NCBI RefSeq assembly: GCF_900168115.1
Contig: NZ_FUZC01000001.1
Span: 372,001-436,000 of the forward strand
DNA from: Salegentibacter salinarum
Lineage (GTDB): Bacteria > Bacteroidota > Bacteroidia > Flavobacteriales > Flavobacteriaceae
Direction of reading: 5' to 3'
Length of the DNA: 64,000 nucleotides
Shown here: piece after piece, positions 6,405 through 51,213 of the stretch
How the letters are laid out: each line of letters begins with the position of its first letter
Numbering within the stretch: position 1 is the first letter of the stretch
The notes under the pieces: generated by a model
The model's input: only the letters and a program-made list of their open reading frames with translations
Database searches by the model: none
Told to the model about the DNA's origin: nothing
Program-made: the position numbers and the translations under genes

Positions 6405-6454
6405 GATCTCCGAATAAATTTCGGAGCAGGCTCTTAAACAAGTTCAGGATGACG
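6405..6454 (-). repeat. Partial copy of a dispersed intergenic palindromic repeat
   Basis: A hairpin CTCCGAATAAATTTCGGAG is followed by ACAAGTTCAGGATGACG. The latter is the reverse complement of the left arm CGTCATCCTGAACTTGT seen at 41545. This looks like a truncated, inverted copy of the family described in the findings. Confidence 0.6.
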
Positions 6455-10642: not shown

Positions 10643-11461
10643 TTAAGCTTTTCGGTAAGCCAAAACAGCCTTCCGAACGTTCCCGTATTCCTGAAGTAAG
10701 CCAGCAGCTTCTTTTTCTCCAATACCTAATTCCTCCATGATCATACGGGTGCCACGGCTGACTAATTTTTTATTAGAAAGTTGCATATCAACCATTTTAT
10801 TGCCCTTTACCCGGCCTAATTTTATCATTACCGAAGTAGAAATCATATTTAAAACCAACTTTTGAGCAGTCCCCGCTTTCATTCTTGTGCTTCCTGTAAC
10901 GAATTCGGGTCCGGTAACAACTTCAACAGGAAATTCACTGGCTTCTGCTAACGGACTTCCAGAGCTACATGTAACACAGCCGGTAATAATTCCATTTTTA
11001 CGAGCTTCTTTAATTCCGCCTATCACATAAGGGGTTGTTCCTGAAGCGGCAATCCCAACCAAAACATCTTTTTCAGAAACATTATATGACTGAAGGTCTT
11101 TCCATGCTTGTGCTGTATCATCTTCAGCATTTTCTACGGCATTTCTAAGGGCAGTATCGCCACCGGCTATTAAACCGATTACCATTTGATCTGAAACTCC
11201 AAAAGTAGGCGGACATTCTGAAGCATCTAAAACTCCTAACCTGCCACTGGTTCCGGCGCCTATATAAAAAAGTCGGCCACCCACTTCCATTTTGGTAACT
11301 ATTTTATCTACCAGCGTTTCAATTGCTGGAATTTGCTTCTCAACACTTTCAGGTACCGTCTTATCTTCCTTATTTATATTCCTAAGAAGATCTGCAGTAC
11401 TCATTTTCTCCAAATCATTGTAATTTGAAGTCCTTTCTGTATCAGGGTTTTTATTTTCCAT
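10643..11461 (-). CDS. murQ: N-acetylmuramic acid 6-phosphate etherase MurQ
   Basis: This 272-residue protein has the SIS-domain etherase signature: RLFYIGAGTSGRLGVLDASE with catalytic Glu82 in ASECPPTFG, then IAASGTTPYVIGG and TGSTRMKAGTAQKLVLNMIS. MurQ removes the lactyl ether from MurNAc-6-P, giving GlcNAc-6-P and D-lactate in the cytoplasm. It is slightly shorter than the E. coli enzyme (about 298 residues), mostly at the C-terminal helices. It lies 18 bp downstream of the GH20 gene and 55 bp upstream of the DigH-like gene. The GlcNAc-6-P product then needs deacetylation and deamination, for which the NagB-PIG-L fusion across the terminator is the local candidate. Confidence 0.95.
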   Translation of the reverse strand: MENKNPDTERTSNYNDLEKMSTADLLRNINKEDKTVPESVEKQIPAIETLVDKIVTKMEVGGRLFYIGAGTSGRLGVLDASECPPTFGVSDQMVIGLIAGGDTALRNAVENAEDDTAQAWKDLQSYNVSEKDVLVGIAASGTTPYVIGGIKEARKNGIITGCVTCSSGSPLAEASEFPVEVVTGPEFVTGSTRMKAGTAQKLVLNMISTSVMIKLGRVKGNKMVDMQLSNKKLVSRGTRMIMEELGIGEKEAAGLLQEYGNVRKAVLAYRKA

Positions 11462-28163: not shown

Positions 28164-28198
28164 ACCTCACAGGTTTTTAAAACCTGTGAGGTTTTTTT
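28164..28198 (+). terminator. Intrinsic terminator after the M1 peptidase gene
   Basis: A 13-bp perfect stem ACCTCACAGGTTT / AAACCTGTGAGGT with a 3-nt loop is followed by seven T residues. It is the strongest member of the AACCTCACAG hairpin set. Confidence 0.92.
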
Positions 28199-28224
28199 GA
28201 TGAATTTTTTTACCAGTTTTTATT

Positions 28225-28300
28225 TCGTGATTCTGTCCCGAAGTTTCGGGATTATTTCAGAATCTAAATCTCTTAGAACCTGAAACAAGTTCAAGTTGAC
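28225..28300. repeat. Copy of the dispersed intergenic repeat
   Basis: It contains CCCGAAGTTTCGGG (a hairpin shared with 34905-34918) and ends with CTGAAACAAGTTCAAGTTGAC, a near-copy of the right arm at 51165. It lies between a terminator and rnpA. Confidence 0.65.
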
Positions 28301-28380
28301 TTATTTGTAATTCTAAATATTCAGCTTCAGTCTACCTTTAATTCCTCTTAAATTATTCATAGAGAAATTAAAACTATCCT

Positions 28381-30908: not shown

Positions 30909-30946
30909 ATTTTTTAAATGAAGATTTGTTCGGAATTAAAAAAGGG

Positions 30947-31086
30947 AAGACCTGCCTAAAAGGCTTTTTAAATCGTCATTCTTAACCTGCCCATCCGTTC
31001 AGGGGGGGTTATCTCAGAATATAAACATGTTAGAAGCTGAAACAAGTTCAGCTTGACGAAATTAGACTTTTTAGAAGGCCTCTTTT
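30947..31086. repeat. Dispersed repeat copy, possibly nested in a larger imperfect hairpin
   Basis: The inner element spans 30974-31058 and ends with a perfect consensus right arm, CTGAAACAAGTTCAGCTTGA. The left half is diverged and contains CCTGCCC...CAGGGGGG. The outer arms (around 30948-30965 and 31064-31084) pair imperfectly. The left arm alone contains GCCT-AAA-AGGC followed by five T residues. Confidence 0.6.
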
Positions 31087-34892: not shown

Positions 34893-34957
34893 ACGTCATC
34901 CTGTCCCGAAGTTTCGGGATATTTTAGAGATTGCTCCGGAAATTTATTTGGAGATAA
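34893..34957. repeat. Partial dispersed repeat with TCCCGAA hairpin
   Basis: It starts CGTCATCCTG like other copies, carries TCCCGAA-GT-TTCGGGA, and ends with TGCTCCGGAAATTTATTTGGAGA. The last part resembles the hairpin in the copy at 6405. It could also terminate rnr transcription. Confidence 0.55.
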
Positions 34958-35025
34958 AGTTTATGGATATACAATATTTGAAGATATAATATGTTCAGCT
35001 AGGCGTAATTATAAAATATATAGAG

Positions 35026-36436: not shown

Positions 36437-36468
36437 AATTCAAAAAAGATTTGATAATTATTTATAAG

Positions 36469-36493
36469 CCGGCGTCCCGTAACTTCGGGAGAA
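36469..36493. repeat. Short fragment of the dispersed repeat
   Basis: GCGTCCCGTAACTTCGGGAG resembles the CGTC...CCCGAAGTTTCGGG part of the copies at 28225 and 34893. It lies 33 bp after the LysE-family stop codon. Confidence 0.4.
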
Positions 36494-36540
36494 CCGCTGT
36501 AAATTTCAATTTTATAAATTTTAAGCTGAATATTATGAAT

Positions 36541-36571
36541 AAAAAAAGCCCCCAGAAATTGGGAGCTTTTT
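36541..36571 (-). terminator. Intrinsic terminator of tRNA-Cys
   Basis: On the minus strand, immediately after the tRNA, AGCTCCC / GGGGGCT forms a 7-bp stem (one G-U pair) with a 7-nt loop, then seven T residues. Confidence 0.85.
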
Positions 36572-36572
36572 G

Positions 36573-36643
36573 AGGCATCGAGCGGATTCGAACCGCTGTA
36601 CAAGGTTTTGCAGACCTCTGCCTAGCCACTCGGCCACGATGCC
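36573..36643 (-). tRNA. tRNA-Cys (anticodon GCA)
   Basis: On the minus strand the acceptor stem GGCATCG pairs with CGATGCC seven for seven. The D arm contains GCCGAGTGGCTAGGC, the anticodon loop is TCTGCAAAA with anticodon GCA, and the T arm contains CGGTTCGAATCCG. The discriminator base is U. CCA is not encoded. The length is 71 nt. Confidence 0.97.
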
Positions 36644-40309: not shown

Positions 40310-40432
40310 AAAGGTTTGAGAGTTTATTTTTTATCTCCGTCAACCTGGACTTGTTTCAGGTTCTAGAATGTTAGATTCTGAAATAAGTTCAGAATGACAT
40401 TTGATATTAAAATTAAACCTTCAAACCTTTTT
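40310..40432. repeat. Dispersed repeat nested in a terminator-like hairpin
   Basis: Outer arms AAAGGTTTGAGAGTTTA (40310-40326) and TAAACCTTCAAACCTTT (40414-40430) pair at 15 of 17 positions and run into a T tract on the plus strand. Between them lies a repeat copy (40338-40401) with arms CGTCAACCTGGACTTGTTTC and CTGAAATAAGTTCAGAATGAC. It sits between the convergent ends at 40284 and 40477. Confidence 0.75.
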
Positions 40433-41513: not shown

Positions 41514-41652
41514 AAAAAATAGGCTGCTTGAAAAGATTTTAAAGCGTCATCCTGAACTTGTTTAAGGATCTATTATGATGATATTTCCAACATGTTAGAA
41601 GCTGAAAACAAATTCAGCTGGACGAAAAATAACTCTTCAAACAGCCTACTTT
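41514..41652. repeat. Dispersed repeat nested in a larger hairpin downstream of gltX
   Basis: Outer arms TAGGCTGCTTGAAAAG (41520-41535) and CTCTTCAAACAGCCTA (41633-41648) pair at 14 of 16 positions. The inner copy (41545-41624) has left arm CGTCATCCTGAACTTGTTT and right arm AAACAAATTCAGCTGGACG, pairing at 15 of 19. It follows the gltX stop codon. Confidence 0.75.
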
Positions 41653-50556: not shown

Positions 50557-51072
50557 ATGATGAAAAAACTTTTAATGATTTTGGTAGTTGCTGTTTTACT
50601 TACTTCCTGTGACCAGGAAAAAACAGCTTATGTAGATACCACAAAACTAATTCAGGAGTACAAAGAGATGAAAGATGTGGAAGCTGAATTTTCTACACAA
50701 TCAGATTCTGTAAAGAGACAATTAGATTCTATTGCGAGAACATTCCAGCAGGAAGTTCAGGCTTACCAGGAGGAAATGAATTCTTTATCACAGGCACAAC
50801 GCCAGGAAAAAGAGCAGGAGTTAATGCAAAAACAACAAAGAATTCAACAGCAACAACAAATGCAGGGTAACCGACTTAGAGAGCAAAGCGATGCTGTTAT
50901 AGATTCTATTGTAGATAAAGTAAAGGATTATGTAGCAGATTACGGTGAAGAGAATGGTTACACCTATATTTTTGGGTCTAACGAGTCTGCCAATATTATG
51001 TACGCGAAAGACGGTAAAGATCTTACCGAGGAAATTCTTGAGAATTTAAATGAAACTTATAATCAGAACTAA
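50557..51072 (+). CDS. OmpH/Skp-like periplasmic chaperone lipoprotein
   Basis: The 171-residue precursor has a lipobox MILVVAVLLTSC followed by a Skp-like start (AYVDTTKLIQEYKEMKDVEA), a central Gln-rich coiled coil (about 60-115, ending QQRIQQQQQMQGNRLREQS) and a C-terminal domain. Skp holds outer-membrane proteins in solution in the periplasm; lipidated Skp homologues are seen in Bacteroidota. The first two codons are both Met, so the start may be 3 bp further in. Confidence 0.85.
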   Translation: MMKKLLMILVVAVLLTSCDQEKTAYVDTTKLIQEYKEMKDVEAEFSTQSDSVKRQLDSIARTFQQEVQAYQEEMNSLSQAQRQEKEQELMQKQQRIQQQQQMQGNRLREQSDAVIDSIVDKVKDYVADYGEENGYTYIFGSNESANIMYAKDGKDLTEEILENLNETYNQN

Positions 51073-51090: not shown

Positions 51091-51213
51091 AAGAGGTCTG
51101 AGAAGTTTTCCAATTTCGTCAAGCTGAACTTGTTTCAGGATCTAGGTTCAAATTCACTTAGAAGCTGAAACAAGTTCAGCTTGACGAAAAGAATGACTTC
51201 TCAGGCCTTTCTT
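51091..51213. repeat. Dispersed repeat with 25-bp perfect inverted arms, nested in a terminator-like hairpin
   Basis: The inner element is 51114-51189 with perfect 25-bp arms (51114-51138 and 51165-51189), core CTGAACTTGTTTCAG / CTGAAACAAGTTCAG. The outer arms AGAGGTCTGAGAAGT (51092-51106) and ACTTCTCAGGCCTTT (51196-51210) pair at 13 of 15, and the two others are G-U wobbles. It lies between convergent genes ending at 51072 and 51217. Confidence 0.8.

What the first reader, a model, noticed from the sequence alone, without database searches (positions are those of the whole stretch)
51091..51213. Dispersed intergenic inverted-repeat element nested inside terminator-like hairpins
The element 51114-51189 has perfect 25-bp inverted arms and an internal spacer of 26 bp. 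At least seven more full or partial copies lie only between genes: 6405, 28225, 30974, 34893, 36469, 40338 and 41545. In three copies (40310, 41514, 51091) the element is itself enclosed by a different outer inverted repeat of 15-17 bp whose arms look like the two halves of an intrinsic terminator; a fourth (30947) shows this imperfectly. The outer arms differ in sequence between copies. This suggests that the element inserts into, or evolves with, terminator loops. No transposase or RAYT gene is in the window. A REPIN- or MITE-like element targeted to terminators is one reading; a long structured RNA 3' end is another.
Basis: partly seen in the sequence, partly recalled or inferred. Interest (0 to 1): 0.7.

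Follow-up and report, generated by a model that had tools for sequence, protein, structure and literature searches.

The report
Palindromic repeats nested in gene terminators
In a marine bacterium and its relatives, small palindromic repeats sit inside the loops of hairpins that look like gene terminators; related species show the same hairpin with and without the repeat, and sometimes with the repeat flipped, which makes these spots a readable record of how such repeats spread and change.

Summary
The 51091-51213 feature is a head-to-head dimer of CGTC-tagged REP units inside a terminator-like outer hairpin. Five window sites match a model of the whole nested element; of the other listed copies, 6405 is a single unit, 34893 is degraded and 36469 is something else. 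In 2.05 Mb from four repeat-rich species, 82 of 83 repeat clusters (40 distinct loci) are intergenic and none lies between divergent genes. Outer arms enclose 23 of 35 full dimers (random intergenic 8.7%); by locus 9 to 11 of 18. Orthologous spacers lacking the repeat keep the same arms in 8 of 24 cases (cross-locus 13 of 456), at four loci as plain terminators. At three window loci the dimer is inverted between species together with its inner flanks, as replication template switching would do. No RAYT is linked: the genome's one Y1 transposase is IS200-type. CGTC REPs, and REP dimers nested in palindromes, are already described (Di Nocera 2013); empty/filled terminators and loop flipping are the new part. 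New variant of a known kind; direction (insertion, not loss), termination and mechanism are inferred.

The parts
51091..51106 (.). left outer arm, terminator-like (AAGAGGTCTGAGAAGT)
   Evidence: pairs with the right arm in the fold; like arms in G002, G004, G009, G011, G012, G014
51117..51144 (+). left CGTC-tagged REP unit (chimeric: its 5' stem strand matches the right unit)
   Evidence: unit HMM 35.1 bits; position
51145..51158 (.). spacer between the two REP units
51159..51186 (-). right CGTC-tagged REP unit, head-to-head with the left
   Evidence: unit HMM 32.9 bits
51196..51213 (.). right outer arm, terminator-like (ACTTCTCAGGCCTTTCTT)
50557..51072 (+). OmpH-like gene whose 3' end faces the element
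   Evidence: PF03938
51217..51612 (-). convergent small gene, 3' end faces the element
   Evidence: no Pfam family
40310..40430 (.). nested copy: outer arms 40310-40337 / 40403-40430, dimer 40338-40398
   Evidence: dimer inverted in G011, G012, G013
41517..41651 (.). nested copy downstream of gltX; units 41545-41572 (+) and 41596-41624 (-)
   Evidence: dimer inverted in G002, G012, G014; other CGTC family in G011, G013; plain terminators at this place in several named outgroups
30944..31085 (.). nested copy with imperfect arms; intact unit 31031-31058 (-), other unit disrupted by an inner hairpin
   Evidence: ortholog in G014 is a plain terminator
28198..28326 (.). weak copy; one intact unit 28274-28300 (-)
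6433..6454 (-). single REP unit; no terminator-like outer arms seen
34893..34960 (.). degraded unit with inner TCCCGAAGTTTCGGGA hairpin (limits approximate)

Best explanation
The element is a CGTC-tagged REP head-to-head dimer (works like a REPIN) lodged in the loop of an intrinsic terminator at a gene 3' end. Units or dimers entered loops of terminators that already existed, mostly of one sequence class (..TGTYTGAAA..), without destroying the outer stem. Once nested, the inverted repeats are reworked by replication template switching: the loop flips between the outer arms, one arm is copied onto the other (giving the perfect 25-bp arms of the 51114 copy), and loop contents are exchanged for other CGTC repeats. 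Shown: nesting, 3'-end position, same arms with and without repeat, inversion of dimer and inner flanks, different contents at one locus. Inferred: that insertion rather than loss is the direction, that the outer hairpin terminates transcription, that template switching is the mechanism, and that some enzyme moves the units.
For: Unit fits CGTC REPs: 8-bp stem, 5-nt loop, covarying stem positions (TA 48, AT 30, CG 3 and CG 37, GC 23, TA 21 of 83 ungapped units, selected by score). 82 of 83 clusters intergenic; 46 tandem, 35 convergent, 0 divergent, against 218 of 916 divergent gaps; counted once per orthologous locus, 0 of 40 divergent, p=4e-5. Arms in 23 of 35 full dimers against 8.7% of random intergenic positions; by locus 9 of 18 taking the first dimer, 11 of 18 taking any. 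T run at a gene-facing hairpin end in 17 of 23 armed dimers; per strand 22 of 37 against 550 of 3274 at random. Same arms without the CTGAA-type unit in 8 of 24 orthologous spacers (6 of 13 loci) against 13 of 456 cross-locus comparisons (cut-off 19 set after seeing the scores; at 16 it is 9 of 24 against 8.3%). Four loci have plain 4-5-nt loops: G014 at window 30947; G009, G014 and G011 at C17:516065; G000 at C17:534166 and C17:97902. Inversion at S3 (40310), S4 (41514), S5 (51091): inner flanks match better inverted in 12/12, 6/6 and 8/8 opposite pairs (mean identity inverted against direct 0.72/0.66, 0.59/0.52, 0.84/0.62) and in 0/9, 0/4 and 0/7 same-orientation pairs. Other contents: CGTCATTGCGA-type dimer in the gltX terminator of G011 and G013, and in the S5 terminator of G013. 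Loop inversion and arm homogenisation are known products of template switching (PMC8604942, PMC8794818; passages read).
Against: Only 34 of 83 clusters have arms when single and degraded units are included. Arms share a consensus across loci and genera: 12 of 13 HMM-paired arms enclose the repeat (the arm model was built from armed repeat sites, which favours this), and other genera have like arms with the repeat, so part of the arm may travel with the repeat. In 16 of 24 repeat-free orthologous spacers the arms are not found. Polarity is not settled: the three-gene tree has weak nodes. At S4 some orientation differences are small (G000 against G014 -0.01, against G012 -0.06). Template switching is inferred from pattern; horizontal replacement could also bring in flipped versions. 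No transcription data.
Confidence: 0.66

Rival explanations
1. Composite element: outer arms and REP dimer form one ~125-145-bp MITE-like repeat whose terminal inverted repeats look like a terminator, and it inserts as a unit.
For: Many BLAST matches between loci cover about 105-155 bp including the arms at 76-84% identity, others only the inner 70-90 bp. 12 of 13 HMM-paired arms contain the repeat. In other genera like arms enclose the dimer (L283, L299, L303; L295 and L291 with one detected unit), and exact GGCTGTCTGAAA arms enclose dimers in G151.
Against: Same-locus plain terminators with the same, locus-specific arms; same arms with a different REP in G153 and with a 6-nt loop in G016; the same unit or dimer without such arms in many clusters.
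Confidence: 0.22
2. No targeting: REP units land anywhere between genes and survive best where they do least harm; terminator loops are merely tolerant. (Overlaps with the best explanation; the confidences are not exclusive.)
For: Absence from divergent gaps (promoters) and coding sequence is what purifying selection would give; REPs in other bacteria also prefer 3' ends (PMC3733652, section 15 read).
Against: Convergent and tandem gaps offer non-loop space, yet 23 of 35 full dimers (9 to 11 of 18 loci) are enclosed by arms.
Confidence: 0.3
3. A structured RNA 3' end or regulatory RNA family.
For: Very stable fold of 51091-51213 (-76.1 kcal/mol, z -13.1); covariation score 0.367 against 0.144 shuffled.
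Against: No Rfam family at gathering score over the element; below threshold only families far from their gathering scores, mostly microRNA hairpins. Loop contents are swapped, inverted or absent at orthologous loci. Template switching can itself make compensatory changes (PMC8794818 passages).
Confidence: 0.1

Closest known systems
CGTC-tagged REPs (Di Nocera et al. 2013, PMC3733652), closest to their family 2 (8-bp stem, 5-nt loop)
   Same: Unpaired CGTC tag, 8-bp stem starting with an A-T pair, 5-nt loop, head-to-head heterodimers, 3'-end location, no dedicated transposase; G. forsetii (same family, recalled) is named there as CGTC-positive
   Different: Tail CTA instead of the common CCA; many dimers lie in terminator-like loops; empty/filled orthologs and inversion are not reported in the parts I read (abstract, sections 6, 7, 14-17)
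REP dimers or units inserted within palindromes: A. variabilis GTAG-15, H. neapolitanus CGTC-1, T. roseum GTAG-23 (PMC3733652, section 7)
   Same: REPs enclosed by a longer, partly conserved palindrome
   Different: There target palindromes without REP were not found in A. variabilis and H. neapolitanus (in T. roseum hundreds were); here the palindromes are terminator-like and occur empty at orthologous loci
REPIN/RAYT system (GTAG REPs with TnpA-REP)
   Same: Two inverted REP units forming one large hairpin, dispersed between genes
   Different: CGTC tag, no RAYT: the only Y1 protein found in the genome scores as IS200/IS605 TnpA
Template-switch mutations at inverted repeats (PMC8794818, PMC8604942; passages read)
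   Same: Spacer inversion, arm homogenisation
   Different: Loops here are about 75-110 bp and carry a dispersed repeat; the yeast spacer inversions had 2-5 substitutions, the rRNA hairpin loops tabulated were 3-8 nt

Membership tests
CGTC REP superfamily | unpaired CGTC tag at one end | tested here: met
   CGTC in 81 and CGTT in 2 of 83 ungapped units of 12 bits or more; units were selected by a model seeded with CGTC
CGTC REP superfamily | 8-9-bp stem, A/T pairs in first and second stem position | tested here: met
   8-bp stem; first pair A-T 83 of 83, second pair T-A or A-T 78 of 83 (selected units)
CGTC REP superfamily | loop of 4-5 nt | tested here: met
   5 nt, mostly YTTRT, in the 83 ungapped units
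CGTC REP superfamily | short unpaired tail, mostly CCA | tested here: inconclusive
   a 3-nt tail is present but is CTA in 83 of 83 (seeds had CTA)
CGTC REP superfamily | head-to-head dimers predominate, tail-to-tail rare | tested here: inconclusive
   35 of 83 clusters are full head-to-head dimers; my clustering joined only that arrangement
CGTC REP superfamily | no associated transposase gene | tested here: met
   units in 2 of 30 Y1 loci examined (of 43 Y1 matches in the genus), both contig-end fragments of G011; repeat-rich G004 has no PF01797 match, though it is a draft in 60 contigs. Other transposase types were not tested
REPIN (GTAG REP with RAYT) | GTAG tag | tested here: not met
   tag is CGTC
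REPIN (GTAG REP with RAYT) | RAYT gene in the genome | tested here: not met
   one PF01797 match in G000; its 114-aa frame: NCBIfam IS200 119.2 bits over cut-off 55, REP_Tyr_transpos 26.1 under cut-off 80
MITE | target-site duplication and cognate transposase | not tested
   no systematic search for duplications was made
Intrinsic terminator (outer hairpin) | stem followed by a T run, downstream of a gene | tested here: met
   17 of 23 armed dimers have at least 5 T in 6 at one gene-facing 3' end; 22 of 37 strands against 550 of 3274 random
Intrinsic terminator (outer hairpin) | transcripts end there | not testable with these tools
   needs 3'-end sequencing

The most novel reading that the evidence does not exclude
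A RAYT-independent class of REP elements uses the single-stranded loops of terminator hairpins as landing sites, so that gene terminators become nested palindromes whose roughly 75-110-bp loops are repeatedly inverted, homogenised and exchanged by replication template switching, while the outer stem is kept.
Probability: 0.38. Interest if true: 0.72.

Novelty: new variant of a known kind. Interest (0 to 1): 0.52.

Why it matters
CGTC REPs were defined in 2013 as lacking a dedicated transposase, so how they move is open in the literature I read. Orthologous empty and filled terminators in one genus give target sites that can be aligned base by base, and the flipping loops look like a natural bacterial record of template switching at long hairpins. 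Both make old questions (what moves REPs, why they sit at gene 3' ends, how hairpin arms stay complementary) testable in a genus known from marine isolates.

Tried and rejected
RAYT as the mover: rejected as a general cause; the 190-aa Y1 frames occur only in G011, G012 and G013 among the 43 matches. Rfam family: none. Strict structural dimer finder: not used; it gave 7 dimers in the two G000 contigs against 1, 2 and 3 in three Markov versions of C17. The first arm scan (25 clusters, C17 and C24) was superseded. Terminator scan by loop length: loops of 60-110 nt number 9, 1, 9, 5 and 6 in the repeat-rich samples and 2 in G006, but only 18 of 50 terminators with 25-190-nt loops in the repeat-rich samples held a recognised unit (0 of 5 in G006), so it is weak evidence. 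Arm model as a detector of plain terminators: one plain pair of 13, which supports the composite rival. Mini-hairpins inside REP loops: too few to test.

Results against me or needing care. In the covariation control, 'pairs changed on both sides' was reached by 27 of 500 shuffles and 'further pair types' by 170 of 500; cells paired, cells changed on both sides and the covariation score were reached by none. Its 19 rows came from 27 full dimers with arm score 18 or more (8 dropped as long or with other arms), so pairing is partly built in. Clusters of different species are often orthologous: 83 clusters are 40 loci, and p values ignore this; one search recounts by locus (2 clusters could not be assigned). 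Two of the 20 armed groups (15 and 52) are one locus, as are groups 5 and 40. Single units were given up to 150-nt flanks on one side, which favours arms; only the 35 full dimers share the 80-nt flanks of the random control. 'Repeat-free' means no CTGAA-type unit; G011 in group 12 holds another CGTC dimer. mis-cut S5 in two rows and skipped G009 (S3) and G002 (S4); one search read G012 on the wrong strand; S5 was redone. Of 25 gltX loci printed, three were read in a wrong frame. Gene calls are from my own longest-ORF script, not an annotation.

Full report
1. What is there. The repeat 51114-51189 is real. Read in units it is CGTC-AAGCTGAA-CTTGT-TTCAG.. and a head-to-head partner ending CTTGACG. 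A unit model (four typed seeds, then two rounds of its own hits) finds 118 units of at least 11 bits in 2.05 Mb of four repeat-rich species (C17 26, C24 6, G009 30, G014 18, G011 38), 0 in 400 kb of the repeat-poor G006, and 1 in the reversed sequences. Among 83 ungapped units two stem positions covary (TA/AT/CG and CG/GC/TA), giving unit subtypes such as ATC, AAG and ATT.

2. Where it lies. Of 83 clusters 82 are outside my ORF calls (a simple longest-ORF script). Of the 81 with two neighbours, 46 lie between tandem genes, 35 between convergent genes and 0 between divergent genes, while 218 of 916 gaps of at least 60 bp are divergent. Many clusters are orthologs of each other: counted by locus, 0 of 40 are divergent, p=4e-5. 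The window copy lies between an OmpH-like gene and a convergent gene.

3. The outer hairpin. Arms of local score 20 or more enclose 23 of 35 full dimers and 34 of 83 clusters, against 8.7% of 1614 random intergenic positions and 20.5% of mispaired flanks. By locus, 9 of 18 (first dimer) or 11 of 18 (any) are armed. The high mispaired rate shows that arms of different loci resemble each other; the excess of true pairs shows that each locus also has matching arms of its own. The common form is AAAGAGG(C/T)TGT(C/T)TGAAAAGT. A T run follows the hairpin at 17 of 23 armed dimers. RNA folding of 51091-51213 gives one nested hairpin of -76.1 kcal/mol, z -13.1.

4. Host and spread. The exact 15-mer CTGAAACAAGTTCAG occurs 43 times in the window genome, 23 to 112 times in nine genus members and 1 to 3 times in five, one of them only 61% complete. 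A model of the whole nested element gives 132 to 150 matches in the window genome and the nine (both strands counted, at most 150 candidates scored per genome) and 0 to 9 in the five. In 299 genomes drawn from the wider family (three of this genus) the 27-base unit pattern occurs in 21, 19 of 236 genera, with 1 to 6 copies outside this genus.

5. Empty and filled terminators. Twenty orthologous spacer groups (19 loci) contain an armed site; 13 include a species without a CTGAA-type unit. In 6 of these 13 (8 of 24 spacers) that spacer has a hairpin with the same arms, against 13 of 456 cross-locus comparisons (cut-off 19 was set after seeing the scores). The clearest: at C17:516065 three species have AAAGAGGAAGTCTA / TAGACTTCCTCTTT (one base differs in G011) with a 5-nt loop, and the window genome has AGAGGAAGT..ACTTCCTCT around a REP unit. 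At group 43 the window genome has AAATGCTGTTTGATAATG-TTCA-CATTATCAAACAGCATTT and G011 has the same outer stem around one unit. G014 has a plain terminator at the locus of window 30947, and the window genome has one where G009 has a dimer. At window 40310, G006 keeps the arms with an unrelated 31-nt loop. At the gltX locus (41514) several of the named outgroup genomes printed carry plain terminators with other stems.

6. Flipping and exchange. At three window loci the dimer is in opposite orientation in different species: 40310 (G000, G002, G004, G009, G014 against G011, G012, G013), 41514 (G000, G004, G009 against G002, G012, G014), 51091 (G000, G002 against G004, G011, G012, G014) (at 41514 some differences are small, but the order of the unit subtypes agrees). 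The short flanks between arm and tag are inverted as well, in 12 of 12, 6 of 6 and 8 of 8 opposite pairs that could be cut and in none of 20 same-orientation pairs, which places the breakpoints in or next to the outer arms. In the survey of C17, G009, G011 and G014, inversion was seen at 2 of 10 distinct loci with full dimers in two species (groups 12 and 13). The groupings do not follow the three-gene tree, whose nodes are partly weak. The perfect 25-bp arms at 51114 look like a copy of the right unit onto the left half: the left unit's 5' stem strand matches the right unit while its 3' strand (GGATCTA) is like that of G002. At 41514, G011 and G013 carry a CGTCATTGCGA-type dimer in the same stem (in G011 part of the stem is gone); G013 has another such dimer in a terminator at 51091 with other arms.

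7. Mechanism. Template switching between short inverted repeats is known to homogenise arms and invert the spacer (PMC8604942 and PMC8794818, passages read). That fits point 6 without a recombinase. It also warns that compensatory changes in the arms need not mean selection on RNA. What first brings units into loops is unknown. The genome's one Y1 transposase is IS200/IS605 type, G004 has no PF01797 match although repeat-rich (a draft, so multi-copy genes may be missing), and units were found in 2 of 30 Y1 loci examined. This agrees with the published lack of a dedicated CGTC transposase (PMC3733652, sections 16 and 17 read).

8. The rival. Many matches between loci extend over about 105-155 bp, arms included. 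In other genera (G151, G158, G021, G202) similar arms enclose the same repeat; in all, 16 of 58 clusters in the 30 loci have arms of score 20 or more, a few of them pairings of one repeat with another or loci of this genus. Exact GGCTGTCTGAAA arms enclose the CTGAA dimer in G151, a different REP in G153, another sequence in G190 and a 6-nt loop in G016. Arms and contents are therefore modular, but some copies may have spread as one composite. I hold insertion into terminators as the main route and the composite as a minor or earlier one.

9. What is known. CGTC REPs and their dimers, their 3' location and cases of REPs nested in palindromes were described in 2013 (PMC3733652: abstract and sections 6, 7, 14-17 read; PMC6006769 on Y1 proteins: passages and section 25). 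Searches on Bacteroidetes with REPIN and RAYT, Flavobacteriaceae miniature inverted repeats, CGTC repeats, REPs with terminators and loops, inverted repeats with template switching and with terminators, and Salegentibacter repeats (open-access papers only; 12 of 76 and 12 of 117 hits listed, the listed papers seen mostly as titles and first lines of abstracts) showed no report of empty and filled terminators or of loop inversion for REPs.

Noticed in passing
window 36437-36570: TCCCGTAACTTCGGGA-type mini-palindrome next to the tRNA at 36573-36643. The related CCCGAAGYTTCGGG form lies after CTGT inside REP-like hairpins in 5 of 8 intergenic sample copies by eye (4 by a loose regex) and inside two tRNA-like fragments (G009, G014)
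   Followed up: partly
G000 C17:244026-244090 and other sample loci: Other CGTC REP families coexist: CGTCATTGCGA/ATTACGA type and TGTCATTCCCGCC type (the latter resembles Neisseria dRS3, recalled)
   Followed up: partly
L055 about 10818-10960 (C17:520818); orthologs in the G009, G011, G014 samples: Conserved ~134-nt stretch closed by AAAGACTGTTTAAA/TTTAAACAGTCTTT and T run, no Rfam match up to E 1: candidate unnamed RNA
   Followed up: partly
genome samples, for example C17:31339, G009:218469, G011:175488, G014:174025: Plain terminators with near-identical stems AAACCTCACAGGTTT/AAACCTGTGAGGTTT recur in the samples, with a variant in the repeat-poor G006: a repeated terminator sequence in its own right
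   Followed up: no
L307 and L310 (G153, another genus): Same outer arms GGCTGTCTGAAAAGTC enclosing a different REP-like dimer (GTCAAACTGAGCGCAGTCGAAGTTT)
   Followed up: partly
L311 (G151, another genus): Right REP unit extended into a perfect hairpin (TTTGTTTTGTCAATCTGAA..TTCAGATTGACAAAACAAA), looks like a template-switch copy
   Followed up: no
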